Assembly: GCA_022072165.1 (NCBI GenBank)
Contig: JAJVIF010000002.1
Coordinates: forward strand, 324,258 to 388,257
DNA length: 64,000 bases
Direction of reading: 5' to 3'
DNA from: a bacterium
Lineage (GTDB): Bacteria > JAJVIF01
Part shown: piece by piece, positions 7,351-61,214 of the stretch
Layout of the letters: every line of letters begins with the position of its first letter
Numbering within the stretch: the stretch's first letter is position 1
Position numbers and translations under genes: made by a program
The notes under the pieces: model-generated
Databases searched by the model: none
What the model was told of the DNA's origin: nothing
What the model saw: only the letters and a program-made list of their open reading frames with translations

Positions 7351-8800
7351 CACCCGTGGGGACTTCGGGGGCCAGGAGGCGATCACGGAAGGCGAGCCAG
7401 CCTCCCGCCGCCAGTGTCCCCAGGAAGTACAGCGCCAGTCCGAGCACCACCAGATTAGGCTCGGTCGGTTTGCCTGACGCCAGGGCATCCTCGAACGGAA
7501 TCAATGACTGTTCCTTCTTCGCGACCATGCTGCGCGCCATATCCTCCAGGTCTCGCATCCGCCCCAAGAGCGCGCTGTTGATGCGCCGTTGCCGTAGCAG
7601 CGTCAGCAAATCCAGTTCCCACCGGGGATAGTTCCCAAGCGTGGCTTCCAGCGCTGCCGCTGCTTCCGCATAGACTTCACTCCGTGCGTGTGCAGCCACT
7701 GATTCAAGCAGATACTTCCCCGCCTCGACCTGGTTGTTCTGCACCAATAAATCGACAATCGCCTGCCGGACCTGTCGGATTTCTTCCGACCGCCCCGCCA
7801 CCGCCGGATGCGCCTCGGTGTAGCGCAGCAGGTCCCGCTCCTGGGCCATGTACAACGTCGCCAGGTCTTCCCGCAGCCGTGAGAGCGTGGGATCGCGATA
7901 GATGAGATCGCTCGCCGCCGGACGATCCAGCGCCGGATCGGCCCCCAGGTCCATCAACGACAACTGTCGGCGCATCTCCAGGGCGGCATCGGCCCGGTCG
8001 ACCAGGAGCGCGACGTAGGTGTCCGCCGCCTGCGCGAGGGCCTCCTGACGCGCCTGGCGTTCCCGGAGTCCCAGCAGTTCGGTGTACTTCGCCGGCAGGT
8101 ACTTCGTTGGCGCGATGAGGGATTCCTCGGCCTGATACGCCGCGATGCGCGCATCAAGCTGCGCCAACTCCTGCTCCAGGTCCTGCACCCGACTGGTTAG
8201 CCGCCCGAGGGTCACCGTGTCTTTCTCATCCAGCATGGCATCTACCGACTCCCGCAACAGGTCGCGGTAAGCCAGCGCCATACGCTCAGCGACCCTGGGA
8301 TCGGAAGCCGTGAAGGCGATGGTGAGGAGTTGTGAGTCCTCATCGACATCCACTTTCAGGTCCTCCATGACCCTGGCGGCCAGGAGGTCCGGCGGCTCGG
8401 CTGCTACCCCCAGTGCCTCAGCAGCACTGGCGCGTGCGACTGCTTCCAGCTGCGTGGAGCGCGAGTACAAAAACGGACGAAAGTCGTAGGCATCGAAGGC
8501 GAGCTGGTCGAGGAGAAAGTAGAACGTGGTTTCCCGCCAGAGGCTCAGCGATGCTCCCTGGCCGCCAGCCAGTTCCTTCGCCAGTTCGTTCCAGTCGTCG
8601 CTCCCCGCCTTCGCTTCCCAGGTCGGGAGCTTGCTGGTCTTGAACCCCGCCCAGGGGAGTCGATCTTTTTTGATGAGGAGCGTAGTGGTGGCGGTGTACC
8701 GCTTTGGCGCGACGAGAGCAACCATCACCAACGACGCCGCCAGCACCAGCCACCAGCGGAGGAGCGCAGGCCACCAGGAGTGGGTTGTCAGGGCAGTCAC
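7319..8800 (-). CDS. Wzz/GNVR-type chain-length determinant-like membrane protein
   Basis: The protein of about 493 residues has the layout of polysaccharide co-polymerases: an N-terminal membrane helix (WWLVLAASLVMVALVAP), a PKRYTATTTLLIKKD strand typical of Wzz domains, a long helical periplasmic middle with coiled coil (TSRVQDLEQELAQLDARI), and a second helix near the C-terminus (NLVVLGLALYFLGTLAAGGWLAF). No tyrosine-kinase domain follows. Such proteins set the length of O-antigen or exopolysaccharide chains. Two GTG codons (8803, 8800) are possible. A TATCCT box at 8813-8808 ends 7 bases before 8800, fitting a leaderless start there. It sits 18-21 bases after the YkgJ-type gene on the same strand. 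Confidence 0.78.
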   Translation of the reverse strand: MTALTTHSWWPALLRWWLVLAASLVMVALVAPKRYTATTTLLIKKDRLPWAGFKTSKLPTWEAKAGSDDWNELAKELAGGQGASLSLWRETTFYFLLDQLAFDAYDFRPFLYSRSTQLEAVARASAAEALGVAAEPPDLLAARVMEDLKVDVDEDSQLLTIAFTASDPRVAERMALAYRDLLRESVDAMLDEKDTVTLGRLTSRVQDLEQELAQLDARIAAYQAEESLIAPTKYLPAKYTELLGLRERQARQEALAQAADTYVALLVDRADAALEMRRQLSLMDLGADPALDRPAASDLIYRDPTLSRLREDLATLYMAQERDLLRYTEAHPAVAGRSEEIRQVRQAIVDLLVQNNQVEAGKYLLESVAAHARSEVYAEAAAALEATLGNYPRWELDLLTLLRQRRINSALLGRMRDLEDMARSMVAKKEQSLIPFEDALASGKPTEPNLVVLGLALYFLGTLAAGGWLAFRDRLLAPEVPTGAIRRDYSAAQ

Positions 8801-8821
8801 CACCCGGAGGATAGCAAGCCG

Positions 8822-9256
8822 CTACACCTGATCAGACCAGTCGCGCTCACGGGCCTTCCAGGCGGCATCCACCAGTCGCCAGGCCGCCCGGACCCGGGTC
8901 CGCAGCCACTGCAGAGGCGGCATCTTGCGGGGATCGATCCCCTCCTCCACTGCGGTCATTCCCAGTCGGAACGCATCCTCCCGACTCAGGCAGCCCCAGG
9001 TCCGGCAGACATAAGGCCGTCGCGCATAGATGGAGCAGCGATCGGTCGCCTCATCCAGATATTGACAACTCCCCGACGCCTGCCGGGCGATCACTGGTGA
9101 GGGCTGACCATCGATGGCTGCGAGGGTCGCGTCGCCGGCGGCGATGATCGACCGGTCCCAGGCGTAGCGCGGGTCCAGCGGAATCACCGACACCCGGCAA
9201 CAAAGCGCCCGACAGGCAGCACACTCCGGGACTCGCAGGGTCGGGACGTTGGTCAT
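8822..9256 (-). CDS. YkgJ-family cysteine-cluster protein
   Basis: This 144-residue cytoplasmic protein belongs to the UPF0153/YkgJ family of zinc or iron-sulfur proteins of uncertain role. The cysteine pattern is complete: C12, C15, C19 and C20 (CAACRALCC), then GSCQYL, DRCSIYARRPYVCR and WGC. The RRPYVCR segment is the family signature. The start ATG 9256 is reached 6 bases after a TACACT box (9268-9263), which indicates a leaderless message. The promoter lies back to back with that of the NTF2-like gene. The Wzz-like gene follows on the same strand, but no functional link is evident. Confidence 0.85.
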   Translation of the reverse strand: MTNVPTLRVPECAACRALCCRVSVIPLDPRYAWDRSIIAAGDATLAAIDGQPSPVIARQASGSCQYLDEATDRCSIYARRPYVCRTWGCLSREDAFRLGMTAVEEGIDPRKMPPLQWLRTRVRAAWRLVDAAWKARERDWSDQV

Positions 9257-9276
9257 AGCGGCAGTGTAAGTAGAAT
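9249..9276. promoter_or_regulatory. Overlapping divergent promoters for the YkgJ and NTF2-like genes
   Basis: On the plus strand TTGGTC (9249-9254) and TAGAAT (9271-9276) are 16 bases apart. On the minus strand TACACT occupies 9268-9263, six bases before ATG 9256. The plus-strand -35 overlaps the minus-strand start codon, so the two polymerases should compete. Confidence 0.55.
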
Positions 9277-9318
9277 GCCGACGTTCTTCATCTCGCTCGC
9301 ATCGTGCAGGAGCTGCCC

Positions 9319-9720
9319 ATGTCCTCGTCTTCCCGGGATGTCATCACCGCCCTCTATACCGCGTTTGCTGCCCAGGACCTCCCCGGCATTCTGGCGCTGC
9401 TCCATCCCGAGGTGGAGTGGGTGTTTCATGTAGCAAATCCGCCTGCTGGACCAGGGGGTGTGCGTCGGGGGCATGTGGGCGCGACCGAGTTCTTCCAGGA
9501 AGTTGGCATGGCCGAAGAGATCCACGAGTTTGTCATTGATCTGATGGCCGTCGATGGGGAAGAGGTGGCGGTGCGTGGGCATGAGCGAGTGACTCATCGG
9601 GGGACTGGCAAGAGCTGGGGATGCCCCTGGGTCCACTGGTGGACGGTCCGCGATGGCCTGGTGGTGAAGTACGAAGGCTTCATCGACTCGGCGAAAGTCG
9701 AAGCGGCATACACCCCCTAG
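9319..9720 (+). CDS. NTF2-like / SnoaL-type protein
   Basis: The 133-residue protein is a small alpha+beta cone of the NTF2/SnoaL superfamily. Marks are the helix VITALYTAFAAQDLPGILALLHPEVEW, the central strands EEVAVRGHERVTHRGTG, and the closing VHWWTVRDGLVVKYEGFID. Members include isomerases, cyclases, hydrolases and non-catalytic binders, so function cannot be assigned. ATG 9319 is preferred over GTG 9304 because AGGAG lies at 9308-9312. The Nmad3-type gene starts 18 bases after its stop and is probably cotranscribed. Confidence 0.8.
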   Translation: MSSSSRDVITALYTAFAAQDLPGILALLHPEVEWVFHVANPPAGPGGVRRGHVGATEFFQEVGMAEEIHEFVIDLMAVDGEEVAVRGHERVTHRGTGKSWGCPWVHWWTVRDGLVVKYEGFIDSAKVEAAYTP

Positions 9721-9738
9721 CCACCAGCCCGTACCCTG

Positions 9739-10578
9739 ATGCGCATCAGCTTTTCCCGGAAGGGCTTCGACTCCGCTGCAGGTGGGGTGCCGAGCCCCAT
9801 GTTGGATGGCCGTCCGGTCTCGTTGCCGATCCCGGCCAACGGGACTCCCAGCGTCACGCGCTATGGTGACCTGCAGGGCGACTACGCGACACTGGTCACC
9901 GACCTGACACGCGGCAGACTCACCGGGGCAGACTATTGCCACTGCGATCCGGACCTCATCGCCGGGCTCCTGCCGCGTCAGGCAGACTGGCGCGGCGCGC
10001 TGGGAACTGACAAGATCGCCCTGAGCCATCTGCGGAATCAGCAGTTCGGTCCCGGCGACCTCTTTCTCTTCTTCGGGCTTTTTCAGCCAGTCATGCGTAG
10101 CAGGGATGGTTATGTCTTCGCTGGTCCCCGGGAGCATCGGTTGTGGGGCTGGCTCCAGGTCGGCGAGGACATCGATCTGGGTCCCGATGGGTCGCACGCA
10201 GTCCGGCAGTACCCCTGGCTGGAGACTCATCCCCACACCCGCGCTGGCTGGCAGCATCCCAATGGCATCTTTCTCGCGACTCCACGGCTCACCCTCCCTG
10301 GCCTGACTCATCTCCCCGGATGGGGGACCTTCGCCATGGGACTCCCACTTACGGCCCCCGACGCGCAGGTTTCGACCTGGCAGGTCCCCGCCTGGCTGCA
10401 TCCTGGCCAGGGCGGCACGGGGCTTACGTATCACGACCAGGCAAGCCGCTGGCTGGAGCCCGGACGACTCCGTGTCGCAGGGCGAGGACAGGAGTTTGTG
10501 GCCGATGTCGGGGATCGGAGCGATTTCCTCGACTGGCTGCACTGGCTCTTCGCGACCGCGGTTCCTGAGATCCCCTGA
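9739..10578 (+). CDS. Nmad3-type protein (nucleotide modification associated domain 3)
   Basis: The N-terminus MRISFSRKGFDSAAGG, then PSPMLDGRPVSLPIP, is what I recall for the Nmad3 family, a domain linked by genome context to phage and defence systems with modified nucleotides. The 279-residue chain contains HCDPDL, a central FGPGDLFLFFGLFQ strand and GYVFAGPREHRLWGWLQVG. A run of His and Trp residues follows (ETHPHTRAGWQHPNGIF). No catalytic residue is established. It follows the NTF2-like gene by 18 bases and is followed by a strong hairpin. No base-modifying enzyme lies beside it; the nearest DNA methyltransferase is 7 kb away. The family call is from memory and should be checked by profile search. 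Confidence 0.65.
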   Translation: MRISFSRKGFDSAAGGVPSPMLDGRPVSLPIPANGTPSVTRYGDLQGDYATLVTDLTRGRLTGADYCHCDPDLIAGLLPRQADWRGALGTDKIALSHLRNQQFGPGDLFLFFGLFQPVMRSRDGYVFAGPREHRLWGWLQVGEDIDLGPDGSHAVRQYPWLETHPHTRAGWQHPNGIFLATPRLTLPGLTHLPGWGTFAMGLPLTAPDAQVSTWQVPAWLHPGQGGTGLTYHDQASRWLEPGRLRVAGRGQEFVADVGDRSDFLDWLHWLFATAVPEIP

Positions 10579-10585
10579 AACAACT

Positions 10586-10615
10586 CACCCCCCGGACCAT
10601 TGGATCCGGGGGGTG
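10586..10615. terminator. 11-bp hairpin between convergent genes
   Basis: CACCCCCCGGA and TCCGGGGGGTG form a perfect 11-bp stem with an 8-base loop. Read from the minus strand it is followed by AGTTGTTTC, so it may terminate clpC. Read from the plus strand no T-run follows, but it lies 8 bases after the Nmad3-type stop. Confidence 0.6.
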
Positions 10616-10789
10616 CAGCGAAGCTGATGAAACCGATCGGCGCACCAGGCGCTCGTGTCACATCATGCGGTCGCTGGCGCCTCCAGGGACGGGAGCTTGC
10701 CCCGTCGAAACTGCTGGAGGTGCATCCGACCTCGTTCGCGGCGATCCAGCCGAGCGTACCGGCGACCGTGCGAACACGTCGGGGGAGCT

Positions 10790-13276: not shown

Positions 13277-13638
13277 GGTTCGGTCGCTTTCCCGGTGCGG
13301 CAGGATGTCGGGACCGGACGGCATCCCGAACAGCCTGCTGGCACCTGCCAGAAGTCGCTCCCGCTGGCCTGAAGCGGCTCGAGAGCGTCAGACGGGCCAC
13401 AGATCCCTGCATCAGGGGGTGTGGCAGGCGGTACAGGGGGGGCTCAGTACCGGCCAGCCTGGACCGTACACCGGGAGTGCCAAGAAATGCCGCACCCCGT
13501 CGGGACGGTCGCCCGTACCCTAGTATCCCACCTCCTTAAGGAATGTTGATTAGTTTGTACGGCGACTTTAGGGTGCCAAATGGATACTGTCACCCCGCTA
13601 TCCCGCTTCCCATGCGGTCAACCTGCTACGCTGCCGGT
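13277..13638. other. Divergent intergenic region, clpC / CoA-binding gene
   Basis: The 362-base gap between two divergent genes holds no convincing ORF. On the minus strand a GATACT (13527-13522) could be a -10 for clpC, giving a leader of about 240 bases. No CtsR-like GGTCAAA repeat or CIRCE element was found. The plus-strand -10 TACGCT lies at 13627-13632. Confidence 0.5.
13627..13632 (+). promoter_or_regulatory. Leaderless -10 box (TACGCT)
   Basis: TACGCT ends six bases before ATG 13639. The 12-base string TACGCTGCCGGT recurs exactly at 38447, again directly before a start codon. Confidence 0.55.
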
Positions 13639-14091: not shown

Positions 14092-14118
14092 CCGCTTGTC
14101 ACAACGCCCCGGCCTTCA

Positions 14119-14514: not shown

Positions 14515-14613
14515 AGCAGGGGATTATGCGTTGTCGTGACCAGTTGCCAGCCACATCCTGTCCCCTCGAATGGTGGACCCGTCAGCGGCATAGTCCCCAT
14601 CGGAGAGGCTAAT

Positions 14614-15666: not shown

Positions 15667-15701
15667 CGTTCGCTCCTCGCGTTCCGTAAGACGGAAAAAG
15701 A

Positions 15702-16115: not shown

Positions 16116-16154
16116 GTTTTGGACCTTTTCTCTTGCTCCGTGCCAACCCTGAGT

Positions 16155-16183
16155 ATTCTCTCTCCCTCTCGCGCGCCTGTCAA
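16155..16183 (-). promoter_or_regulatory. Candidate sigma-70 promoter for the Cys-rich protein
   Basis: On the minus strand a perfect TTGACA (16183-16178) is followed after 17 bases by GAGAAT (16160-16155). The implied leader to ATG 16115 is about 33 bases. Confidence 0.5.
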
Positions 16184-17333: not shown

Positions 17334-17551
17334 GTGTGAGGCCCTCCTCTGCGGCGATAATAGGGTATGACCGGCCGCCGCGGATAACCCGCCGCGCCTC
17401 TCCAGTATATCAGTCAAACCGATTCACCATGACCCCGCTGCTAGAATCATCGGTGCCCAGTCACCTTCCAGACAACGGATTCCAAGGGCACGGCAGATTC
17501 TCCCAGATGGCACAACACGGCATCGGGTACGCGGTAAGCCGGAGGAGCAAA

Positions 17552-20500
17552 GTGACTGAACATCTGGACCGGCTAAAAGATCTCCTCGCGGAACTCTTCC
17601 AATTCGATCATGCCGACCTGGACTTTGGCCTCTACCGCATCCTCAACGCCAAGCGGGAGGAAGTGACGCGCTTCCTCAACGAGACCCTGCTCGGACAAGT
17701 CGCCGATGCGTTCGCGAGCTACGAGTCGCAGGATCGCGCCGCGCTAGAGCACGAGCTAGAGGCGGCGCGGAAGCAAGCCGAAGAGCTGGGCGTTGATCCC
17801 GACACGACGCCACGCGTCAAGGAACTCCGCGCGAAGATGGCCGACGTGCCTGACCGTGCTGCGCTGGAGTCGGCGGTGTACTCGCACCTCTACACCTTCT
17901 TTCGGCGCTACTACCACGAGGGGGATTTCCTCACGCTGCGGCGCTACAAGGAAGGGGTCTATGCCATCCCCTACGCGGGCGAGGAAGTGAAGCTCCACTG
18001 GGCGAACCACGACCAGTACTACATCAAGACCAGCGAGCACTTCCGCGACTACTGCTTCACCGTGGCGGACGGACGGCGCGTCCATTTCAAGCTGGTCAGC
18101 GGCGATACCGAGCGCGACAATAACCGTGCGCAGAACGGCAAGGACCGGCGCTTTGTCTTTGTGGGACAGGGCGAGTCCGGCGACAGCGCGTTGGTCTTGC
18201 AGTTCGCGTACCGGCAACCCGACGGAAAGAAATCGAAGCAGGCGGAGCTGAATGCCGAGGCTGCCCAGCGCGTCCTGGCGCTTCCGGGCATTTCGGCATG
18301 GGTGGCTGAACTGACTGAACCACGCCCGACCGACAAGTCGCCGAGCCGCACGCTGCTGGAGAAGCACCTCGCTGAGTACACCGCGCGGAACACGTTTGAC
18401 TACTTCATCCACAAGGACCTGGCAGGCTTCCTCAAGCGCGAGCTGGACTTCTTCATCAAAGCCGAGGTCATGCACCTCGATGACATCGAGCACGACACCG
18501 CGCCGCGTGTGGAACAGTACCTCGCGCAAATCAAGGTGCTGCGGGCGCTCGCGCACCAGATCATCGCATTCCTCGCCCAGATCGAAGACTTCCAGAAGAA
18601 GCTCTGGCTGAAGAAGAAGTTTGTGGTGGACACGCAGTGGTGCGTGACGCTGGACCGGCTGCTGCGAATCGAGGACGCCGCCGAACGCGATTGGCTCCTC
18701 GCCGAGATCATCGCCAACGACGCGCAGCGCGAGGAGTGGGTCCGCCTGTTTGCCATCGACAACCTGGCGGGCGATTTAACGACGCCCGGCTACGCCGCGC
18801 CGCTCACGGCGGATTTCCTCCGCTCCCATCCGACGCTGGTGGTCGATACGCGGCACTATGCCATCGAGTTCCGTGACCGGCTGCTGGCGACGTTCGCGGA
18901 CATTGACGCTGAGACGGACGGCGTACTGCTCCACAGCGAGAACTTCCAGGCGCTGCGATTGTTGCAGGCGCGGTACGAGGGTGCGTTAGCGTGCATCCAC
19001 ATCGATCCCCCTTACAACACACAGACCAGCGGGTTTCTGTACCGAAATGATTATCAGCACTCGAACTGGCTGGGAATGATGGGGGATCGGCTTCAACTTG
19101 GCTGGCAGTTACTAGCTCCAGAAGGAAACTTACTGTGCCATATTGATGAAAATGAGAACGAGCGCCTGCACCTCCTTTGTGACTACTTGGGACTGTCCAA
19201 TGCGGGAACCGTTATCTGGGACAAGCGGAACCCCATGTTGGGGCGAGCTGGCATCGCTACCCAACATGAGTATGTTCTCTGGCGCACACCGAATGACGAC
19301 CCCGTGTACCTACGAAACGTGAACCAACGCATGATTTTGGAAAAGGCCGCTGAGATTATCCAGCAGTCGAACGGGGTTTCTGAGGAAGCTAGGCGAAAAT
19401 TTGCATCATGGGTTGGCTCATGCCTCGATCTCTCTGGGGGCGAGAAAGCCTATCGGTTCCTTGAGCACGATGGTCGAGTCTACCGTGGCGTTGCGATGGG
19501 AGCGCCAGAGCCTCGTACTGACCCCAAGTTTCATGAGCCGCTAATCCATCCCATGACTGGACAGCCGTGCCCGGTTCCTCCAAACGGCTGGTCACGTACA
19601 CCCCAGTCCTTACGGGAACTGCTTGCCCACGATGAACTCATGTTCGGCCCTGACCACACATCACAACCGCAACGCAAGGTGTATCTAACTAAAGACTCCC
19701 AACGTCAGGTCCCTTCCTTAGTGCAAGAGGCAGGGAGCGGAAAAGCTGACCTCGACAAGCTGGGCCTGGACTTTCCTTACTGTCATCCAGTCGGTCTCTA
19801 CATACACCTCATGGGAGCAGCCTGCCCAAAGAAAGCTGTTGCCTTAGACTACTTTGCTGGAAGCGGAACGAACGGCCACGCGGTTATTTCCCTGAATCGC
19901 GAAGACGGAGGGTCCCGTAAGTTTGTCTTGGTGGAGGTCGGAGAGCAGTTTCGCACTGTCCTCTTGGAGCGCATCAAGAAGGTGACCTACACGCCGGAAT
20001 GGAAAGACGGTAAACCGAAACGTCTCCCCACGGCAGAGGAGATTGAACGCAGCCCCCACTTCATCAAGGTCCTCCGCCTCGAATCCTACGAGGACACGCT
20101 CAATAACCTCGCGCTGCACCGTTCGCCCGCGCAACAAACGCTGCTCGACCGCAACGACGCGCTGGCCCACGAGTACAGGCTCCACTACCTCCTCGATGTC
20201 GAAACGCGCGACAGTGCGTCATTGCTCAACATCGCGCAATTCGCCACGCCCTTCGACTACCGGCTGGACATCGCCACGGACAGCGTAGGCGAAACAGTCC
20301 CGACCGTCGTGGATTTGGTGGAGACCTTCAACTACCTCCTGGGCCTGCGCGTCCAGACGATGCGGACGGTTGAAGGCGTCCGGGTCGTCACGGGCTCGAC
20401 GCTGGACGGCCAACGGGTCTGCGTCCTGTGGCGCACAGTCGCGGAGGTCGATAACGCTAAGCTGCGAGGGTGGTTTACGCGTCATCTTCTTGACCGGGCT

Positions 20501-20628
20501 GATGACTTCGACCTGATCTACGTGAACGGGGACAACACTTTGGCCTCATTGCGGCTGCCCAACTGCCAATGGACCGTGCAGCTCACAGAGGAGGCCTTCC
20601 ACCGGCTAATGTTCGAGGGGGTAGAGTA

Positions 20629-20629
<1 letters not shown>
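17552..20629 (+). CDS. Type III-like adenine-specific DNA methyltransferase (Mod)
   Basis: This 1,025-residue protein should methylate adenine in a specific DNA site and protect the host from the nuclease encoded next. It is a beta-class N6-methyltransferase: motif IV DPPY (residues 485-488) precedes motif I FAGSGT (768-773), with the target-recognition region between them. The N-terminal 480 residues before DPPY, and about 200 after motif I, make it much longer than EcoP15I Mod (about 644). GTG 17552 has GGAGGA at 17541-17546, five bases away; an upstream in-frame start at 17336 adds 72 unlikely residues. GC content falls to about 47-48% in the lines at 19021 and 19141 against about 60% at 18541, suggesting exchange of the recognition domain. 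Its stop overlaps the next start (TAATG). Confidence 0.88.
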
Positions 20630-23826
<3,197 letters not shown>

Positions 23827-23858
23827 CCATGTGGAATTAGGCGGGAGACCGCTTCCAC

Positions 23859-23882
23859 TAGAATCGCCCTGCCTAGGGAGGG
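23859..23882 (+). promoter_or_regulatory. -10 box and ribosome-binding site of mutS
   Basis: TAGAAT (23859-23864) is preceded by a weak TTAGGC (23837-23842) at 16 bases and followed by AGGGAGGG (23875-23882), ten bases before ATG 23893. mutS thus has its own promoter after the restriction gene. Confidence 0.5.
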
Positions 23883-23892
23883 TTCCGCCCCG

Positions 23893-26430
<2,538 letters not shown>

Positions 26431-26442
<12 letters not shown>

Positions 26443-26490
26443 TCGGCATGTCTATAATGCGGTTCTCGCATCATTCACGTTGCATCGGAG
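26431..26490 (+). promoter_or_regulatory. Promoter and ribosome-binding site of the DUF262-HNH gene
   Basis: TTGTTC (26431-26436) and a perfect TATAAT (26453-26458) are 16 bases apart. GGAG at 26487-26490 lies seven bases before GTG 26498. The -35 lies inside the end of mutS. Confidence 0.65.
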
Positions 26491-26497
26491 CTTCACT

Positions 26498-28291
26498 GTG
26501 GCAAACGACGGCATGCTATTTAGGGATACGGGCCATCCACTGGAGTGGCTGCTGGCAAACATCGCACAGGGCGATCTTGCGCTGCCAGACATCCAGCGAC
26601 CCTTTGTGTGGAGCAGCACCAAGGTGCGGGATCTGTTTGATTCCATGTTTCGTGGTTTTCCCGTAGGGTTCCTTCTCCTCTGGGAGAGTCCGCATGATAT
26701 TGACTCGCGACAGGTAGGTGTGGAACAGAAATCCCGCCAACGGCCGAAGTGGCTGATCATCGATGGACAACAACGCCTGACGTCGCTGTACGCCGTCATG
26801 CGCGGCATCCCCATTCTGGACAAGGAGTACCGGGAAAAGCACATACATATTGCTTTCTGCCCGCTGGAGGGCAAGTTTGAAGTCACGGATGCAGCCATCC
26901 GAAAAGACCCGATGTGGCTACCGGACATCACTGAAGTCTGGGCTCCAGGCTCCAGCCAGAGCAAACTGCGCAAGGACTTCATCCAACGGCTGGCGAAGGC
27001 CCGAGAGGAAAAGGGGTTACAACTGACGGAGGCAGAAGAAGAGCAGATCGAGCAGATGCTCAATCGCCTGTTCGCCCTCAAAGATTTCCGTTTCACGGCC
27101 CTCGAAGTCGACAGCGGCGTAGCAGAGGATCAGGTGGCCGAGATTTTCGTACGCATTAACAGTCAGGGAGTTGCACTAAAGCAAGCAGACTTCATCCTGA
27201 CGCTGATGTCGGTGAACTGGCCAGAGGGGCGGGTTCAACTGGAAGAGTTTTGTACATCCGGTGTACGGCCCTCACCGAACAAAGCAGCCAGTAGCTACAA
27301 CTATGTGCAGGAGCCAGATCCCGCAGGTTTTCTGAGGGCTTCATCAGCCCTGGCATTCAATCGTGCCCGGCTGCGATTCGTGTATCAGATTTTGCGGGGT
27401 CGCAATCCGGAGACCCAGGAGGTCACTGAGGAACTGCGAGAATCACGGTTCAGGCAACTGGAAACTGCCCAGCAGGCAGCACTAAATCTGAATAACTGGC
27501 ATGGGTTCATTGATTCCCTGCGGGGGGCGGGCTTTCTGAGCAAAGACCTGATCTCCTCCGAGCTGGCGGTCTGGTACAGCTACGCCATTTACCTCATTGG
27601 CCGGGAACGATACCAGGTCTCCAGTGTCACGCTGGATTGGCTCATTCCTCAGTGGTTTGTGCTGTCCCTGCTGACTTCACGGTATACCGGCTCTTCCGAA
27701 ACCCAGGCGGAAGAGGACCTGCAGGCGCTGCATGTACCGCAATCCGCTGATGAGTTTATCCAGACTTTGCGACGCCTTATGGATCTGGTTGCCACAGATG
27801 CTTACTGGAAGGAAGAGTTGGTAAAACAACTCGACAGTTCGGGTGCCCGCAATACAGCCTTCATGACCTTCCTTGCCAGTCAAAATGCCCGAAAAGCCCC
27901 AGTCCTATTTTCTCAAAAGCTGGTGCGTGACCTGATGGACCCGCAGATTCGTCGCAAACGAACTGCCATCGAAAAGCACCACCTCTTCCCTAAGGCATTC
28001 CTGAAGCGCTCTGGGATCACAGACCAGAAGCAAGTCAATCAGGTGGCCAATCTGGCGATTCTGGAGTGGCCGCAAAACCTGAAAATTTCAGATGAAGCTC
28101 CCCAGGACTACGCGCCACGCCTCCTGATGATGGCTTCATCCGAAGACGCGAAGGCGTGGTCAGAAGCCCACGCATTACCAGAGAACTGGTACCTCATGGA
28201 GTATGACGAGTTCCTGCTGGAGCGCCGAAAGCTCATGGCCCAACTGATACGCCAACACTTCGAATCCCTCTGCCCTGTCACAGTTTCATGA
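26498..28291 (+). CDS. GmrSD-like DUF262-HNH protein (putative type IV restriction enzyme)
   Basis: The 597-residue protein carries both halves of the GmrSD system in one chain. The N-terminal DUF262 domain shows LPDIQRPFVWS, VRDLFDSMFRGFPVG and the nucleotide-binding DGQQR (residues 89-93), followed by FVRINSQGVALKQADF. The C-terminus holds an HNH-type nuclease: H494-H495 in KHHLFPKAFL, N514, N518 and N527. Such proteins (GmrSD, BrxU, SspE) restrict phage DNA with modified bases or act with backbone modification. GTG 26498 is chosen for its Shine-Dalgarno site and fit to the domain start. GC content is lower than in mutS (about 52% in the line at 27481), consistent with transfer. No modification partner is adjacent. 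Confidence 0.85.
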   Translation: MANDGMLFRDTGHPLEWLLANIAQGDLALPDIQRPFVWSSTKVRDLFDSMFRGFPVGFLLLWESPHDIDSRQVGVEQKSRQRPKWLIIDGQQRLTSLYAVMRGIPILDKEYREKHIHIAFCPLEGKFEVTDAAIRKDPMWLPDITEVWAPGSSQSKLRKDFIQRLAKAREEKGLQLTEAEEEQIEQMLNRLFALKDFRFTALEVDSGVAEDQVAEIFVRINSQGVALKQADFILTLMSVNWPEGRVQLEEFCTSGVRPSPNKAASSYNYVQEPDPAGFLRASSALAFNRARLRFVYQILRGRNPETQEVTEELRESRFRQLETAQQAALNLNNWHGFIDSLRGAGFLSKDLISSELAVWYSYAIYLIGRERYQVSSVTLDWLIPQWFVLSLLTSRYTGSSETQAEEDLQALHVPQSADEFIQTLRRLMDLVATDAYWKEELVKQLDSSGARNTAFMTFLASQNARKAPVLFSQKLVRDLMDPQIRRKRTAIEKHHLFPKAFLKRSGITDQKQVNQVANLAILEWPQNLKISDEAPQDYAPRLLMMASSEDAKAWSEAHALPENWYLMEYDEFLLERRKLMAQLIRQHFESLCPVTVS

Positions 28292-32853: not shown

Positions 32854-32859
32854 TATCCT
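32854..32859 (+). promoter_or_regulatory. Short-leader -10 box (TATCCT)
   Basis: TATCCT ends ten bases before ATG 32870. No Shine-Dalgarno site lies between them, so the message is leaderless or nearly so. Confidence 0.45.
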
Positions 32860-36464: not shown

Positions 36465-36470
36465 TATGCT
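36465..36470 (+). promoter_or_regulatory. Leaderless -10 box (TATGCT) of the TPR gene
   Basis: TATGCT ends seven bases before ATG 36478. It lies within a 5-bp inverted repeat (CTGCT/AGCAG, 36461-36476) that could bind a regulator. Confidence 0.45.
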
Positions 36471-38446: not shown

Positions 38447-38452
38447 TACGCT
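38447..38452 (+). promoter_or_regulatory. Leaderless -10 box (TACGCT) of the SpoU methyltransferase
   Basis: TACGCT ends seven bases before GTG 38460. TACGCTGCCGGT is shared exactly with 13627-13638. Confidence 0.55.
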
Positions 38453-42154: not shown

Positions 42155-42160
42155 TACACT
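42155..42160 (+). promoter_or_regulatory. Leaderless -10 box (TACACT) of the DnaJ-domain gene
   Basis: TACACT ends seven bases before ATG 42168, so the second of two ATG codons (42162, 42168) is the likely start. Confidence 0.5.
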
Positions 42161-44868: not shown

Positions 44869-44891
44869 GGGACTGATAATAGCAATGCGCC

Positions 44892-47026: not shown

Positions 47027-47072
47027 GTCCGACGGATTATCGGCTGGCAACGCCAGCGCTTAAAGCGGCAGT

Positions 47073-48089: not shown

Positions 48090-48099
48090 GCCGGGGAGT

Positions 48100-49320
48100 C
48101 TACACGTCGGTGCCAGGAAGGAGATGACAGGTGACGGGCGTTCCGATGGGCAGGAGACTTTCAGTCTCTGGAATCACGATCAGGCAATGGGCATGGGCGA
48201 ACCGGCTGAGCTGATGCGATCCCTGGCCTTCCAGGGGCGAGACTCCCTGGGAGGTGAAGGTGCCCCGCAGGAATTGCGTCAGTTCCGGTATACCCGACAC
48301 AGCGGACATGAGCGGCAGCAGCCGTGATGGCAAGTGGGTCTCCCGATAGCCGAGCATCCCGCGCAGCAGGGGCCAGGCATAGATGTAGAAGCAGGTGAGC
48401 GCGCTGACCGGATTGCCGGGGAGCCCGAGGATCACCTGCCCTGCAGGACCCCGGGCGATGAGCAACGGCTTGCCGGGACGCTGTCGCACGCGCCACAGGA
48501 GGGGAGTCGCGCCCAGAGCGTTGAGGGCGCTCTGTACGAAATCGAAGTCCCCGACCGACACCCCCCCGGTCGTGAGGATGACATCGCACTCTTCCAGCAA
48601 TGTCTTCAGTCGCTCACGCACAGCTTCGGGCTGGTCGGGGGCGTAGCTGGTCGCATGGGGCGTGAGACCAAGTCCCTGCAGGGCGGCGGCCAGCATTGGG
48701 AGATTGCCATCGATGATCTGATGCGGCAGGGGGGTATTGCCAGCCGGGACAACTTCATCCCCCGACGTAAAGAGCCCGATGCGGGGAGCCTGACAGATGT
48801 CGACTTCGGCGATTCCCAGAGAGCTGAGGAGTCCGACCGCTGCCGGATTCAGCGTCTCCCCAGCGGACAACGCCACCGCTCCGGCGGCGAGGTCGCTCCC
48901 CTGCTTCCGGATGTACTGCCCCGCGGTCAGCGCTCCGGCGACCTCAATCTCTTCGGTTGTTCCTCCAGTGACGAACTCCTGCATGACTACCGCTTCGGTC
49001 CCTGATGGCAGCGGACTGCCCGTAAAGACCCGGATTGCTTCTCCTGGCTGCAGGGCCATCGCGGTCTCGCTTCCGGCCTGCATCTGCCCGATCACCCGCC
49101 AGCGATCACAGACCGGGGGGAGTCCGGCGAGAGCAAAACCATCCATCTGCGAGTTGTCGAAGCCTGGGAGGTCGCGAGGCGCGATGAGATCCCGGGCCAC
49201 CGGACGCTGGCACGCCTCGAGGAGCGACCTGCGGACGAGGGGGTGGGGTTGCGCCAGCTCTGCGATGAGCTGGAGGGCCTCGGAGACCGGCACGGGGGCA
49301 GCGGACATGGACGGGAGCAT
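48100..49320 (-). CDS. moeA: Molybdopterin molybdenumtransferase MoeA
   Basis: The 406-residue enzyme inserts molybdate into molybdopterin. Family marks are the N-terminal PGFDNSQMDGFAL, the MPT-binding DVILTTGGVSVGDFDFV, and GLPGNPVSALTCF. The domain order (I-IV) and length are normal for MoeA. A second in-frame ATG is at 49308. It stands at the head of a minus-strand run but no other molybdenum-cofactor gene is in the window. The promoter region is shared with the divergent YfhO-like gene. Confidence 0.93.
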   Translation of the reverse strand: MLPSMSAAPVPVSEALQLIAELAQPHPLVRRSLLEACQRPVARDLIAPRDLPGFDNSQMDGFALAGLPPVCDRWRVIGQMQAGSETAMALQPGEAIRVFTGSPLPSGTEAVVMQEFVTGGTTEEIEVAGALTAGQYIRKQGSDLAAGAVALSAGETLNPAAVGLLSSLGIAEVDICQAPRIGLFTSGDEVVPAGNTPLPHQIIDGNLPMLAAALQGLGLTPHATSYAPDQPEAVRERLKTLLEECDVILTTGGVSVGDFDFVQSALNALGATPLLWRVRQRPGKPLLIARGPAGQVILGLPGNPVSALTCFYIYAWPLLRGMLGYRETHLPSRLLPLMSAVSGIPELTQFLRGTFTSQGVSPLEGQGSHQLSRFAHAHCLIVIPETESLLPIGTPVTCHLLPGTDV

Positions 49321-49338
49321 ACCCTGCTGACGGATTCG

Positions 49339-49344: not shown

Positions 49345-49356
49345 GCCATCACCACG

Positions 49357-51576: not shown

Positions 51577-52526
51577 CCCAGGAGTCGCAGGGCGAGCGCC
51601 GGGCTGACGTACTTCCGTCCGGTGGCACCATCTACCACGGTCACGGAAATCTCGATGGTGGTGTTGCCATGGATCTCCAGATCGTCTTCGGAGTATGTCA
51701 GCAGATGCCGGGCGCATTCGAGGCGCCAGCCTTCCCCGGCGCGATAGGTCGCCCGGGCCCGGACATCCCCGGCGCTGTCGGCAGGCTCCTGGGGCTCCAG
51801 CAGCGTGATGACATCACCCTCGTAGCGCTCCGGCACGGGGCGCGTACGATGGCTCAGCCGTCCCTTGTCGGGCAATGAACTGACATAGCGGGTCCCCTCG
51901 GGTCCGACGACTTTTTGGGCCGTCAGACCCTTCTCCGGAGCCCGGAGCACGACCCTCCACATGTCATCGGCGTAGCCCGAAGGATTCGTACTGGCGGCCC
52001 CCCAGCGCCACATGTCGGCGGCGTAGCCACGACCGGTGAGGATGTCGCCCCGGAAATCGCCATACGTTTTGAGCAGGAGAGTCATGGTGTCTTCAGCGAC
52101 AGACATCGGGGCGTACTTGGTCTTGCGGACATCCCACTGCTGCATCTGGGCGGCATCATCGAACGTGGTGTCATCCCAGGAGATGGCGAAGTAGATGATG
52201 TGGCTGTTGTAGTACGCCTGCAGGGTGGCGGATTTCGTCGCCCCACTGCCACCCGCTTCGGTGAGCGTCAGTGTCTGCGGAGTCACGGACTGCCAGCCGG
52301 GGTCGTTGAGTTCCCCATCCAGGATGGGATCCTTGCCCGTGATTCTGGCGATGTCGATGGTCCGGACCGCCTGCGACGGAAAGTCGGGCTGTCCCTGGAC
52401 AGTCAGGGGCATTCCCTGCCAGTCCATCCAGTCATCGTCAGCTTCGTCTGCCGGGGCAGAGAACCCGAGGGCCGGGACGGTCAGGATGAGGGCACAGAGG
52501 GTGAGTTTGAGGGCCGGATGCTGCAT
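51573..52526 (-). CDS. Secreted ethylbenzene-dehydrogenase-like (heme-binding-type) protein
   Basis: This 317-residue exported protein has a signal peptide (MQHPALKLTLCALILTVPAL, cleavage after GFSA). The next part is typical of the EB_dh family: DGELNDPGWQSVTP, SATLQAYYNSHIIYFAISWDD and DDMWRVVLR. In characterised members it is a heme-binding gamma subunit of DMSO-reductase-type enzymes. No catalytic subunit is nearby, so a free cytochrome or binding role is possible. ATG 52526 is reached eight bases after TATTCT (52540-52535). It converges on the YfhO-like gene with a four-base overlap of stops. Confidence 0.75.
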   Translation of the reverse strand: MQHPALKLTLCALILTVPALGFSAPADEADDDWMDWQGMPLTVQGQPDFPSQAVRTIDIARITGKDPILDGELNDPGWQSVTPQTLTLTEAGGSGATKSATLQAYYNSHIIYFAISWDDTTFDDAAQMQQWDVRKTKYAPMSVAEDTMTLLLKTYGDFRGDILTGRGYAADMWRWGAASTNPSGYADDMWRVVLRAPEKGLTAQKVVGPEGTRYVSSLPDKGRLSHRTRPVPERYEGDVITLLEPQEPADSAGDVRARATYRAGEGWRLECARHLLTYSEDDLEIHGNTTIEISVTVVDGATGRKYVSPALALRLLG

Positions 52527-52578
52527 GAGCGGAGAGAATACACGTCGCGGGCCAGCGCGAAAATCGGCTCGCCGCGGC

Positions 52579-52584
52579 TACAAT
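52579..52584 (+). promoter_or_regulatory. Leaderless -10 box (TACAAT) of the SRPBCC-mutL operon
   Basis: TACAAT ends six bases before ATG 52591, the clearest leaderless case in the window. Confidence 0.6.
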
Positions 52585-52590
52585 CGGCTC

Positions 52591-53067
52591 ATGGGTCTTG
52601 TCTCTGCCACCATCACTGTCGCCGCACCCCCTGAAACGGTCATGGCGGTCGCCCGTCGGGTAGAGGATTTCCCGGAATTCATGCCCGATGTCACCGGGGT
52701 CACCATTCTGGAACGCGATGAGGCTCGGGGCTGGTCCCGGGTGAAATGGGATGCCAAGGTGGATGTCCAGTCGATCCGGAAGCCGATCCGGTGGATCGAG
52801 GACGAAACCTGGAACATCGCCGAACGTCGCTGCGACTTTGTGCTGGTTGAGGGGGATTACAAGAAGTATGACGGCTTCTGGACGTTCGAGCCGACCCCCG
52901 AGGGGGGCACCACCATCACTCTCACGACCGACTTCGATCTCGGGCTGCCCCTGGTTGGTCCCCTGATCAACAAACTGCTCGACAAACTGATGCGTGACAA
53001 CTGCGCGGCGATGCTCACTGCGATCCGGGACCGGGTCGAGGCAGCGGCGCCGCAACCTGCCGGATAG
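52591..53067 (+). CDS. SRPBCC-family (Coq10/START-like) protein
   Basis: The 158-residue protein is a small helix-grip fold of the SRPBCC/Coq10-like family. It opens with ATITVAAPPETVMAVARRVEDFPEFMPDV, the usual first strand and helix, and contains WRV-type strands RCDFVLVEGDYKKYDGFWTF. Members bind lipids, quinones or aromatic polyketides in a deep cavity. The function here is unknown. ATG 52591 is chosen by the promoter; an upstream in-frame start at 52225 would overlap the divergent gene. mutL follows by 17 bases, so the pair is probably cotranscribed. Confidence 0.88.
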   Translation: MGLVSATITVAAPPETVMAVARRVEDFPEFMPDVTGVTILERDEARGWSRVKWDAKVDVQSIRKPIRWIEDETWNIAERRCDFVLVEGDYKKYDGFWTFEPTPEGGTTITLTTDFDLGLPLVGPLINKLLDKLMRDNCAAMLTAIRDRVEAAAPQPAG

Positions 53068-53084
53068 CCGCCTCGGCTCCCCTG

Positions 53085-56635: not shown

Positions 56636-56641
56636 GGGGGG

Positions 56642-56647
56642 ATGGTA
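56642..56647 (-). promoter_or_regulatory. Leaderless -10 box (TACCAT)
   Basis: On the minus strand TACCAT ends six bases before the GTG start at 56635. Confidence 0.45.
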
Positions 56648-57058: not shown

Positions 57059-57069
57059 AGGAGCCAACC

Positions 57070-57669: not shown

Positions 57670-57678
57670 CAGCTCCTG

Positions 57679-59961
57679 GTGAACGACTGGGGCAACGGCA
57701 ACCGGACGGACTCGGTCTCTGGTGAGCCGATTTACAACGGGTTCGCGCCGACAGGCAACTTTCTGCCCCACGGGTGGCAGACCGGGACCACCGAGACCTG
57801 GACCGGATTCGATGTGCTCCATCAGGGCCAGACTGCCGAACGAGTGCTGTCACTGGACCTGGCGGCTATTGAGAGTGCGGGCTCGGTGAATTTCCGGGTG
57901 GCGATCTTCGACAAGTACGTTGACCCGAAGTCCGCAACACCGGGATCGCTGCATCGACTCCCGGCGGATCCGCCAGACCTCCTGGGTCACTTCGGGTATC
58001 GCTATCCCCACGGCTGCTGGGATGTGTCGCATGTCGCTTTCGACTATGAATCGCAGGGGCTGGTGACGGATAAGCCCAGCGAAACGACTGTCCACTTCCA
58101 TGTGCGCGACTGGGATGCCCTGGCATCGGTGAGCGCTGAGAGCGATCTCTCCCTGGAACCCGATCCCGTAAAAGTGCTGGCTTCCAGCGCTGGAACGCCA
58201 TCGTTGCGCGCTTGTGTGCCAGCTGCGCTGGGTGGTCCTGCCGCCTTTGTCCCCTTCGGCAGCACTCCCACGGATGATGACTCCCATATGTACCAGCGCA
58301 ACGGCGATGTGGGGGCTGACTCCGGGCAGCCCCGCGATGAGCTCTACTACCGTCGCACCATTTCCTCCCCCACGGGCGTGCCAGCCTCAGCGGGGAACCG
58401 GATCTGGGGTGTGCTGGAAGTCGCGGACATCGAGGCCACCCTTCCGGGCTATCAGAAGGTCCTGGATGGCAATCTGCAGCCACTGACCACCAATCTGCCA
58501 GGCAACGTGACCTATCAGGTCTTCGCCCTGGATGTCCAGCCCCGCTCCACGCAGACCGGCTGGGCCGCCTCCGGCGAGGGAGCCGGGAACAACTGGGCCA
58601 GTGCAGTCGCCTATGACTCCCTGGGCAACGTGTACTACGGCGGCAGCTTTTTGGGGAGCATCAGCCTGGGCGGCACCACCTACACCAGTGCGGGGAGCAC
58701 CGACTGCTTCGTGGCGAAGTACTCCCTCACCGGGACCTTCGAATGGGCGCAGACCTGGGGCGGCACCGGGGCAGATGAAGTCACGAGCCTCCTGATCAGC
58801 GACGATGACATGTTCAGCCTCAAGGTGGGCGGCACCTTCAGCGGGACCGTGAACTTCGACCCGCCGGCGGGCAGCCCGCGGACAGCAGCGGCGATCGACA
58901 TGTTCGTCCTGCAGCTCCTGAGCACCAATGGCTCCTTTACCACGGTCCGGACGTATGGTTCCCCAGGCGTCGATGTCCTGACCTGCCTGGCGGATAACGG
59001 CAATCGCGGCACCGGCGACTACTTCATCGCTGGCTACATTAATGGGCCGGTCAATTTTGGTGGCGGCCATATCCTGACCCCGGTGAATCCCCTCGAAGGC
59101 TTTGTCGCCGGGATGGACCGGATCACAAACAACGCCAAGTCCGCCTATGTATTGGCCTCTGGTGACTACTCCACGGTGTCGCACATGAGCCTCTTCGAGG
59201 ACGGCGAGCTCGGTATCGCCGGCGTGTTTGTCGACTCCCTCACGGGCCCCTGGGGCGCTGAACCCGGTTCTGGCGACGAAGACATCTACCTCGCGCGCCT
59301 CGCCATGAGCACGACTCCGGGAGCCAGTGGGATGAATTGGGTCTATACCTCCAACCTGGAAGGAACAGAGTCGGTGGGAGGTCTCCACGCCTTTAGCAGC
59401 GGTTCCAGTGCGCGCCTGCTGATGGCTCGCAACTACACTTATCCAGATCCGGTCACTGATGGCTACTCGCTGGATCTCCTCCTGTTGAATCTGATTCCCC
59501 TGCGATCCCAGGGGATCGAGCGCCTCCACAGCTTTGGCATCCAGCGCGCCAATAGCCTGGCCGTCAGGCCCGGTTCCACTCCCGAAGATCTCACGTTCTA
59601 CATCACGGGCTACAAGACTCGCCCGACCTACTCTTCTTCTTTTTACTTCTTCGGTGAGCCGACGCTTCTGGGACTCCCCTCGGGCACTGACAACAAGGAT
59701 GGGTTTGTCTGGGCGCTGAGCGGCGATGGTTCGGAAGGTGCCTTCCGCACAGCGTGGGCCCGGGAGTTCGGTGGCGACCAGGGCGAAGAGGGACTGGCGA
59801 TCGCAGCAGGACCCGCGGCCTTCGGAGTCGAGGCCATCGCCATCGGTGGCACCTATCAGAGCACCACCGACTTCGCCCCTGGTCCTGAGCTCTCCATCCT
59901 GCCGGTGGTGGGTGGGACCGAAGCCTTCGTCACCCAGTGGCCTGCGGATGGTGTCTGGTAG
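57679..59961 (+). CDS. Lipoprotein, C-terminal part with SBBP-like beta-propeller repeats
   Basis: In the same frame as the fragment before it, this 760-residue part continues the lipoprotein after the TAA at 57667. The first third matches the upstream style (NDWGNGNRTDSVSGEPIYNGF). The rest holds repeats of the SBBP/beta-propeller type: AVAYDSLGNVYYGGSFLG, DCFVAKYSLTGTFEWAQTWGG and later DIYLARLAM and FVTQWPADG. Such proteins are exported and of unknown role. GTG 57679 has CTCCTG but no proper Shine-Dalgarno site. A strong terminator follows at 59991. Confidence 0.72.
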   Translation: MNDWGNGNRTDSVSGEPIYNGFAPTGNFLPHGWQTGTTETWTGFDVLHQGQTAERVLSLDLAAIESAGSVNFRVAIFDKYVDPKSATPGSLHRLPADPPDLLGHFGYRYPHGCWDVSHVAFDYESQGLVTDKPSETTVHFHVRDWDALASVSAESDLSLEPDPVKVLASSAGTPSLRACVPAALGGPAAFVPFGSTPTDDDSHMYQRNGDVGADSGQPRDELYYRRTISSPTGVPASAGNRIWGVLEVADIEATLPGYQKVLDGNLQPLTTNLPGNVTYQVFALDVQPRSTQTGWAASGEGAGNNWASAVAYDSLGNVYYGGSFLGSISLGGTTYTSAGSTDCFVAKYSLTGTFEWAQTWGGTGADEVTSLLISDDDMFSLKVGGTFSGTVNFDPPAGSPRTAAAIDMFVLQLLSTNGSFTTVRTYGSPGVDVLTCLADNGNRGTGDYFIAGYINGPVNFGGGHILTPVNPLEGFVAGMDRITNNAKSAYVLASGDYSTVSHMSLFEDGELGIAGVFVDSLTGPWGAEPGSGDEDIYLARLAMSTTPGASGMNWVYTSNLEGTESVGGLHAFSSGSSARLLMARNYTYPDPVTDGYSLDLLLLNLIPLRSQGIERLHSFGIQRANSLAVRPGSTPEDLTFYITGYKTRPTYSSSFYFFGEPTLLGLPSGTDNKDGFVWALSGDGSEGAFRTAWAREFGGDQGEEGLAIAAGPAAFGVEAIAIGGTYQSTTDFAPGPELSILPVVGGTEAFVTQWPADGVW

Positions 59962-59990
59962 TCCAGCCGCCTGCAGCATCACTCACACAG

Positions 59991-60017
59991 GCCGGGTCCG
60001 CGGGGGCCCGGCTTTTT
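59991..60017 (+). terminator. Rho-independent terminator of the lipoprotein gene
   Basis: GCCGGGTCC pairs with GGGCCCGGC (one T-G wobble) around GCGG, and TTTTT follows directly. It lies 29 bases after the stop. Confidence 0.9.
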
Positions 60018-60092
60018 CACCTATGCACGCCGGGTCCCCGTAAGGACCAGACGGTTTCGCGACATCCCAACGGGTGCGGTATACATGCCTGC

Positions 60093-60893
60093 ATGACGGT
60101 GTCCCTCACGCAGATCGTGCTCCTGGCCGTGCAGCTGGACACGCTGGCCGCGTACTACCGCGATGTCCTGCAGCTTCCGCAGGCGCAGGTCGCGTCGGAT
60201 GGCACCTGGGTGGAGTTTCGTGCCGGGTCGCTACTGCTGCGTCTGGAAACCGGGGGCCAGCCGAAGGATGCCCGGGGAGCCACTAAACTGATTTTCGCGA
60301 CCTTCGATGTGGACGCGACCCATCGGCTCTGGTCCGGCCGTGGCGCGGTCCTGGCCCCGGTGCAGGAGGCGCACGGCGTCCGCTTTGCCGATGGGGTCGA
60401 TCCGGAGGGGAATCGCTTTCAGCTCACCAATCGCGGACTCATCGTGACCCAGCCCATCGCGATGACGTCACCGCCACCTGCCGGGGCGCATGCGCCAGTG
60501 CCGATGGGATCGCCAGCGGCGATGCTGCAGACGCCGGGAGCTCCCGGGCTGGGGGTGCTGCGGGTGGAATCGCCCCTGGCACGGCAGGCACGACTCCTGA
60601 TCACGACACAACCTGAGATCCCGGTCTACGGGCTGGAAGGACGTCCCGGCATCGCGGTCTTCATGCGGGATGTGCTGAGTGCGATCAATGCCACGCAGGC
60701 GTATCAGGTGCCGGAACCGGAGCTGTCACGGGCGTTGGGCCAGCTGGGGGGAGTCGGCATGGTAGCGCGTCTGGGGCAGAAGCCGCGACGCGTGGTGGTG
60801 TTCGGTCCGGACACGCTGTCGCTGAACCCGGAGAAGGTCCCGCATCCGCTGGCGCTCCCCCTGGCCAGCAGCGAGGTGTTCCCTTTGGGGTAG
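60093..60893 (+). CDS. VOC-family (glyoxalase-like) protein with C-terminal extension
   Basis: The 266-residue protein begins with one vicinal-oxygen-chelate unit pair: LTQIVLLAVQLDTLAAYYRDVL, WVEFRAGSLLLRLE and GVDPEGNRFQLTNRG. These resemble glyoxalase or bleomycin-resistance proteins. From about residue 125 it continues with a Pro-rich linker and a domain of about 120 residues (LARQARLLITTQPEI, PGIAVFMRDVLSAINATQ) that I do not recognise. The metal ligands cannot be assigned. ATG 60093 is chosen by the domain start; a TATACAT run directly upstream may be the -10. Confidence 0.75.
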   Translation: MTVSLTQIVLLAVQLDTLAAYYRDVLQLPQAQVASDGTWVEFRAGSLLLRLETGGQPKDARGATKLIFATFDVDATHRLWSGRGAVLAPVQEAHGVRFADGVDPEGNRFQLTNRGLIVTQPIAMTSPPPAGAHAPVPMGSPAAMLQTPGAPGLGVLRVESPLARQARLLITTQPEIPVYGLEGRPGIAVFMRDVLSAINATQAYQVPEPELSRALGQLGGVGMVARLGQKPRRVVVFGPDTLSLNPEKVPHPLALPLASSEVFPLG

Positions 60894-60950
60894 GTTTACT
60901 CAGGGAAGCCATGCGGAGATCGTCGCCACTCTGAATTCACTTCGACATGC

Positions 60951-60956
60951 GATACT
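60951..60956 (+). promoter_or_regulatory. Leaderless -10 box (GATACT, with TG extension) of hicB-hicA
   Basis: GATACT ends six bases before ATG 60963, and TGC precedes it directly as an extended -10. Confidence 0.45.
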
Positions 60957-60962
60957 ACTCAT

Positions 60963-61214
60963 ATGAGCGAGGTCACCATCCGCCTGGAAGTGGAAGCGCT
61001 GGAAGAAGGCGGCTATGTCGCCACGAGCCCCGATGTCCCAGGGTTGGTAGTGGAGGCGGAGAGCATCCGCGGGATCGCCAAACTGGCCCCGGATATCGCG
61101 CGCCTGATCTATGAATCGTGCGTAGAGAACAATCTGCCGATCCCGCCGGCCCTGCGCCCTCTTGATGCACCGAGTCCAAAGATCATGCTCACGATTCCGG
61201 TCGGCGTCGATTAA
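60963..61214 (+). CDS. HicB-family/DUF1902-like antitoxin
   Basis: The 83-residue protein has the partial RNase-H-like fold of HicB antitoxins: TIRLEVEALEEGGYVATSPDVPGLVVEAES, then a helix (IAKLAPDIARLIYES). It lacks the added DNA-binding domain of larger HicB proteins and resembles DUF1902 members, which are encoded just before HicA. The next frame, beginning about the stop codon, encodes an HicA-like toxin, which supports the assignment. ATG 60963 is reached directly from the -10 box. It should neutralise HicA. Confidence 0.82.
   Translation: MSEVTIRLEVEALEEGGYVATSPDVPGLVVEAESIRGIAKLAPDIARLIYESCVENNLPIPPALRPLDAPSPKIMLTIPVGVD

What the first reader, a model, noticed from the sequence alone, without database searches (positions are those of the whole stretch)
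8800..60963. Widespread leaderless promoter architecture (TANNNT-like box ending 6-8 nt before the start codon)
At least thirteen genes show a -10-like hexamer ending 6-8 bases before ATG or GTG with no Shine-Dalgarno site: 8800(-), 9256(-), 13639, 14514(-), 36478, 38460 (GTG), 42168, 44868(-), 48089(-, GTG), 52526(-), 52591, 56635(-, GTG), 60963. Transcription would start on or within about two bases of the first codon. TACGCTGCCGGT recurs exactly at 13627 and 38447. Operon-internal genes keep AGGAG. This dual pattern is known from Deinococcota and actinobacteria; here it also resolves many start codons.
Basis: partly seen in the sequence, partly recalled or inferred. Interest (0 to 1): 0.75.

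Follow-up and report, generated by a model that had tools for sequence, protein, structure and literature searches.

The report
Leaderless promoters across a bacterial genome
In this poorly known bacterium, roughly one gene in six or seven appears to have its promoter so close to the gene that the messenger RNA starts at the start codon; this is already known from tuberculosis bacteria and Deinococcus, but here it turns up in a lineage whose three held relatives lack the signal.

Summary
All 13 named starts carry a -10-like box ending 6-8 nt before the codon; 11 are exact TANNNT, two are near matches (14514, 60963). A start-site model picks all 13, plus four more in the window. In 1.26 Mb of the genome, with starts chosen from coding potential alone, TANNNT 6-9 nt before the start occurs in 123/982 genes, against 10/982 ten bases further out and 0.7% of internal in-frame start codons. 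High-confidence leaderless calls number 184/982, against 19-29 with shuffled upstreams. The box marks first genes (33% of divergent genes, 6-9% of operon-internal ones) and excludes Shine-Dalgarno (3/184). The same motif, (C/G)G-N-TACAMT with no detectable -35 element, lies upstream of some tRNA genes and 30-60 nt before Shine-Dalgarno genes, so it is a promoter, not a ribosome signal. This matches the mapped promoter type of Mycobacterium tuberculosis. The genome belongs to a small phylum (4 genomes held); the other three lack the peak, while 11 of 61 sampled Chloroflexota show it. Verdict: real, correctly interpreted, a new lineage for a known architecture. No transcript ends were mapped. 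The TACGCTGCCGGT repeat looks like coincidence.

The parts
8808..8813 (-). -10 box TATCCT (extended: TGC before it), 7 nt before GTG 8800
   Evidence: P(leaderless) 0.98; GTG 8803 is an alternative start
9263..9268 (-). -10 box TACACT, 6 nt before ATG 9256 (CxxCxxCC domain protein)
   Evidence: P 1.0
13627..13632 (+). -10 box TACGCT (TGC before it), 6 nt before ATG 13639 (CoA-binding protein)
   Evidence: P 0.96; coding-only start agrees
14523..14528 (-). near -10 box CATAAT, 8 nt before GTG 14514
   Evidence: P 0.96; not exact TANNNT
36465..36470 (+). -10 box TATGCT (TGC before it), 7 nt before ATG 36478 (TPR protein)
   Evidence: P 0.97
38447..38452 (+). -10 box TACGCT (CGG before it), 7 nt before GTG 38460 (SpoU-type rRNA methylase)
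   Evidence: P 0.99; coding-only start agrees
42155..42160 (+). -10 box TACACT, 7 nt before ATG 42168 (J-domain protein)
   Evidence: P 0.98
44876..44881 (-). -10 box TATTAT (TGC before it), 7 nt before ATG 44868 (nucleotidyltransferase)
   Evidence: P 1.0; the whole gap to the upstream co-directional gene is 23 bp
48097..48102 (-). -10 box TAGACT, 7 nt before GTG 48089 (rlmN-like); overlaps the TAG stop of moeA
   Evidence: P 0.99 but confounded by the stop codon
52535..52540 (-). -10 box TATTCT, 8 nt before ATG 52526 (ethylbenzene-dehydrogenase-like)
   Evidence: P 0.98; divergent partner of 52591
52579..52584 (+). -10 box TACAAT, 6 nt before ATG 52591 (START/polyketide cyclase-like); two leaderless promoters in a 64-bp divergent gap
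   Evidence: P 0.99; coding-only start agrees
56642..56647 (-). -10 box TACCAT, 6 nt before GTG 56635; an AGGAG abuts it upstream
   Evidence: P 0.86, ambiguous with a long-spaced SD
60951..60956 (+). near -10 box GATACT (TGC before it), 6 nt before ATG 60963 (DUF1902)
   Evidence: P 0.98; not exact TANNNT
32854..32859 (+). additional candidate: box TATCCT, 10 nt before ATG 32870
   Evidence: P 0.96, long gap
47036..47041 (-). additional candidate: near box GATAAT, 9 nt before ATG 47026
   Evidence: P 0.98
49316..49321 (-). additional candidate: box TATGCT (GGG before it), 7 nt before ATG 49308 (moeA)
   Evidence: P 0.92
60080..60085 (+). additional weak candidate: TATACA, 7 nt before ATG 60093
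   Evidence: P 0.81

Best explanation
These are -35-independent housekeeping (sigma-A type) promoters whose -10 element, (C/G)G-N-TACAMT, lies so close to the gene that RNA polymerase starts transcription on the first base of the ATG/GTG or within about two bases of it. The mRNA has no leader and no Shine-Dalgarno site, and the ribosome (probably an intact 70S with initiator tRNA) must start on the 5'-terminal start codon. The same promoter, placed 30-60 nt further upstream, drives leadered Shine-Dalgarno genes, and it also drives some tRNA genes. Shown here: position, motif, absence of SD, first-gene bias, sharing with tRNA and leadered genes, and lack of a -35 signal. Inferred: the transcription start, use of the housekeeping sigma factor, and 70S initiation.
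For: Peak at gap 6-9 with starts chosen blind to upstream sequence: 123/982 against 10/982 at gap 16-19 and 120/17182 at internal starts; 119 remain after boxes on stop codons are removed. A two-signal model gives 184/982 high-confidence calls against 19-29 for dinucleotide-shuffled upstreams. SD-like tetramers in 3/184 leaderless against 466/525 SD genes. Pyrimidine just before the start codon in 85% against 71% of SD genes, fitting a Y-1/R+1 transcription start at the codon. Leaderless fraction 33% divergent, 38% at 21-60 bp, 6-9% at 20 bp or less. tRNA genes: 6 of 20 have a box of 8 bits or more within 60 nt against 2.9% of shuffles. In SD divergent genes the box peaks 30-60 nt upstream, and the G two bases before it reappears (59%) though it was not used for selection. 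No -35 signal: best TTGACA match at spacer 15-19 is 2.77 against 2.65-2.85 elsewhere. Whole genome, TACAMT-N6-9-ATG: 144 against 25 at N16-19. Anti-SD CCTCCTTT intact in 16S. Main sigma keeps the E. coli-like region 2.4, 3.0 and 4.2 sequence.
Against: No RNA data. Gene calls came from a home-made caller, with some calls doubtful in the window. The fraction is uncertain: exact-box excess about 12%, shuffle-corrected about 16%; the raw mixture value of 26% is inflated, since shuffled upstreams still give a summed posterior of 181-196 against 257 real. Individual sites such as 48089 and 56635 are ambiguous.
Confidence: 0.92

Rival explanations
1. The AT-rich hexamer is a translation signal (unstructured or S1-binding region near the start codon), not a promoter.
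For: It sits at a fixed distance from the start codon and replaces SD. PMC5397173 notes that such biases could also be S1 sites.
Against: The same motif with the same flanking G and C occurs before tRNA genes and 30-60 nt before SD genes, it is depleted in operon-internal genes, and it has the -10 consensus with near-invariant TA...T.
Confidence: 0.03
2. Selection or reading bias: boxes picked by eye near chosen start codons in a sequence where TANNNT is not rare, or upstream stop codons TAA/TAG supplying the TA.
For: The 48089 box contains the moeA stop codon.
Against: The peak appears with starts chosen blind to upstream sequence; only 4 of 184 boxes touch a stop codon; shuffles give 19-29 instead of 184.
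Confidence: 0.01
3. Promoters with very short leaders (3-10 nt) rather than truly leaderless; translation still starts by a non-SD route.
For: Gaps of 9-12 nt exist: about 27% of the gap distribution, and the start need not be exactly 7 nt from the box.
Against: The modal gap of 6-7 fits initiation on the codon itself, and a pyrimidine just before the purine of the start codon is enriched.
Confidence: 0.1
4. The box is read by an alternative sigma factor that controls a stress regulon.
For: The genome has further sigma-70-like genes.
Against: tRNA genes and general leadered genes share the box, and the consensus is sigma-70-like.
Confidence: 0.05

Closest known systems
Mycobacterium tuberculosis leaderless promoters (Cortes et al. 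2013, PMC3898074)
   Same: TANNNT -10, no conserved -35, SRN/CGN triplet before the box, about a quarter of genes with a primary TSS leaderless, SD kept elsewhere.
   Different: Here the middle of the box is more defined (TACAMT) and the evidence is sequence only; another phylum.
Deinococcus-Thermus -10-motif genes (Zheng 2011, PMC3160421; PMC12340547)
   Same: TANNNT next to the ORF in place of an RBS; experimentally validated as a -10 region in D. radiodurans according to PMC12340547.
   Different: Higher share there (39% average in Zheng); here about 12-16% of genes by conservative counts.
Chloroflexi genomes with TA-led genes (Zheng 2011, PMC3160421)
   Same: Same signal; 11 of 61 sampled Chloroflexota genomes also show the positional excess.
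   Different: Zheng reported 4 of 12 genomes at about 4.7% of genes; this genome has a larger share and lies outside the two Chloroflexota rows in the RpoB tree.

Membership tests
Bacterial TA-led (leaderless) genes sensu Zheng 2011 | TANNNT-like signal about 10-12 nt upstream of the translation start, above shuffled expectation | tested here: met
   123/982 against 10/982 at shifted gaps; 184 against 19-29 shuffled
Bacterial TA-led (leaderless) genes sensu Zheng 2011 | No Shine-Dalgarno on these genes | tested here: met
   3/184 against 466/525; the model assigns each gene to one signal, so part of this contrast is by construction
Leaderless mRNA | Transcript 5' end at or within about 5 nt of the start codon | not testable with these tools
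   No RNA data; only gap 6-9 and Y-1/R+1 composition support it
Mycobacterial-type -35-independent sigma-A promoter | TANNNT with an SRN-like triplet before it and no -35 consensus | tested here: met
   -2 G 60%, -3 C/G 70%, no -35 information
Mycobacterial-type -35-independent sigma-A promoter | Recognised by the housekeeping sigma factor | tested here: inconclusive
   Box shared with tRNA and leadered genes; sigma region 2.4/3.0 E. coli-like, region 4.2 retained; no binding test

The most novel reading that the evidence does not exclude
Leaderless, -35-independent gene expression arose or expanded independently in this one high-GC family of a small phylum, while three sister genomes kept SD-led starts, so the phylum is a natural comparison for how and why bacteria switch between leadered and leaderless expression.
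Probability: 0.4. Interest if true: 0.5.

Novelty: new member of a known kind. Interest (0 to 1): 0.33.

Why it matters
It fixes start codons for an estimated sixth of the genes of an understudied lineage, suggests that co-directional genes 21-60 bp apart are often separate transcription units, and adds a lineage in which leaderless use differs sharply between families of one class. It does not change what is known about the mechanism.

Tried and rejected
The first RpoB tree, which put the clade next to Chloroflexota, had several rows read on the wrong strand; after correction the four genomes form one clade whose place among Chloroflexota, Bacillota and Synergistota rows is unresolved. The model's raw 26% leaderless share was rejected as inflated after shuffling. 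The TACGCTGCCGGT repeat was checked and set aside as coincidence. The reversed-pattern control of the pattern search was judged poor, and the shifted-gap control was used instead. Controls from the Rubrobacteraceae, Pseudomonas, Dehalococcoidia and Chloroflexi genomes (31-74 genes each) were too small to measure leaderless rates.

Full report
What was checked. The window is G000 contig 2, 324258-388257, of a 3.26 Mb genome in four contigs, about 63% GC. All 13 listed starts have the -10-like hexamer at 6-8 nt. Eleven are exact TANNNT. 14514 (CATAAT) and 60963 (GATACT) are near matches. 56635 also has AGGAG next to the box, and the 48089 box shares the stop codon of moeA.

Genome-wide test. I fetched 1.2 Mb of contig 1, added the window, and called genes with a three-periodic Markov model. 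Starts were picked from coding potential alone, so upstream sequence could not bias them. TANNNT then shows a sharp peak with 6-9 nt between box and start, maximum at 7: 123 of 982 genes against 10 at gaps 16-19, 14 at gaps 26-29 and 0.7% of 17182 internal in-frame start codons. Boxes on an upstream stop codon explain only 4.

Two-signal model. An expectation-maximisation model with two upstream motifs found, from loose seeds, T-A-C/T-A-A/C-T at gap 6-9 and an AGGA-type SD. 184 genes are leaderless with posterior above 0.9; dinucleotide-shuffled upstreams give 19, 25 and 29. The corrected share is about 16%. The model's own mixture weight (26%) is too high, because shuffled data also get large summed posteriors.

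Dual pattern. Leaderless calls make up 33% of genes with a divergent neighbour and 38% of those 21-60 bp after a co-directional gene, but 6-9% of those overlapping or within 20 bp. SD-like tetramers occur in 3 of 184 leaderless and 466 of 525 SD genes. The 16S rRNA keeps its anti-SD, CCTCCTTT.

Promoter, not ribosome signal. Aligned on the box, leaderless genes show G at -2 (60%), G/C at -1, and C after the box, with no information 15-40 nt upstream. Matches to TTGACA at spacers 15-19 are no better than at other distances. The same 10-position motif scores 8 bits or more upstream of 6 of 20 tRNA genes (2.9% in shuffles, p about 2e-5), which have no start codon. Among 127 SD genes with a divergent neighbour it is common 20-120 nt upstream and absent within 20 nt; operon-internal SD genes mostly lack it. 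When SD-gene boxes are found by the six core positions only, the flanking G (59%) and C (54%) come back on their own. So one promoter type serves both gene classes, and only its distance from the gene differs. The main sigma factor has E. coli-like -10 and extended -10 reading regions, and an intact region 4.2, so the missing -35 appears to be a property of the promoters rather than of the sigma factor.

Relatives. The phylum has four held genomes, all one class. TACAMT-N6-9-ATG against N16-19: G000 144/25, G001 212/170, G002 192/265, G003 157/180 (p 8e-22 for G000). Direct TANNNT profiles of 107 genes each in G001 and G002 show no clear peak at gap 6-9 (8 and 3 genes). The two relatives sampled have lower GC (0.45-0.49), and the pattern is G000's own consensus, so a differently composed box could be missed. 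Among 61 Chloroflexota genomes, 11 show a significant excess. An RpoB tree groups the four genomes (support 100) without resolving their sister.

Known background. Zheng et al. 2011 (PMC3160421) described TANNNT-led leaderless genes in 207 of 953 bacterial genomes, with averages of 19% in Actinobacteria, 39% in Deinococcus-Thermus and 4.7% in 4 of 12 Chloroflexi. Cortes et al. 2013 (PMC3898074) mapped TANNNT promoters without -35 in M. tuberculosis, often preceded by CGN, with 26% of genes with a primary start leaderless. PMC12340547 reports experimental validation in D. radiodurans. The present genome fits that type closely.

Judgement. The finding is real and was read correctly. It is a new lineage for a known architecture, with an informative contrast to its class.

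Noticed in passing
window 17336-28291: Type III restriction-modification pair (Mod 17336-20629, Res 20629-23826) followed by a MutS gene (23893-26442) and a GmrSD_N/DUF262 protein (26498-28291); possible defence island with slightly lower GC.
   Followed up: partly
G000:C1:1762282-1764138 (L261, L262): Two adjacent sigma-70-like genes: one with a long Ala/Lys/Pro-rich N-terminal tail, the other divergent with a C-terminal extension.
   Followed up: partly
window 52526-52591: Two divergent genes whose starts are 64 bp apart, each with its own leaderless -10 box; canonical -35 positions would overlap.
   Followed up: yes
G001 and G002 (same class): Lower GC (0.45-0.49) and low coding coverage by the same gene caller (56% and 70%), unlike the window genome; could be a caller limit or many broken genes.
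   Followed up: no
window 60963-61214: Small DUF1902-domain protein (HicB-like family by general knowledge) with a near -10 box; toxin-antitoxin pairs are often leaderless in M. tuberculosis.
   Followed up: no
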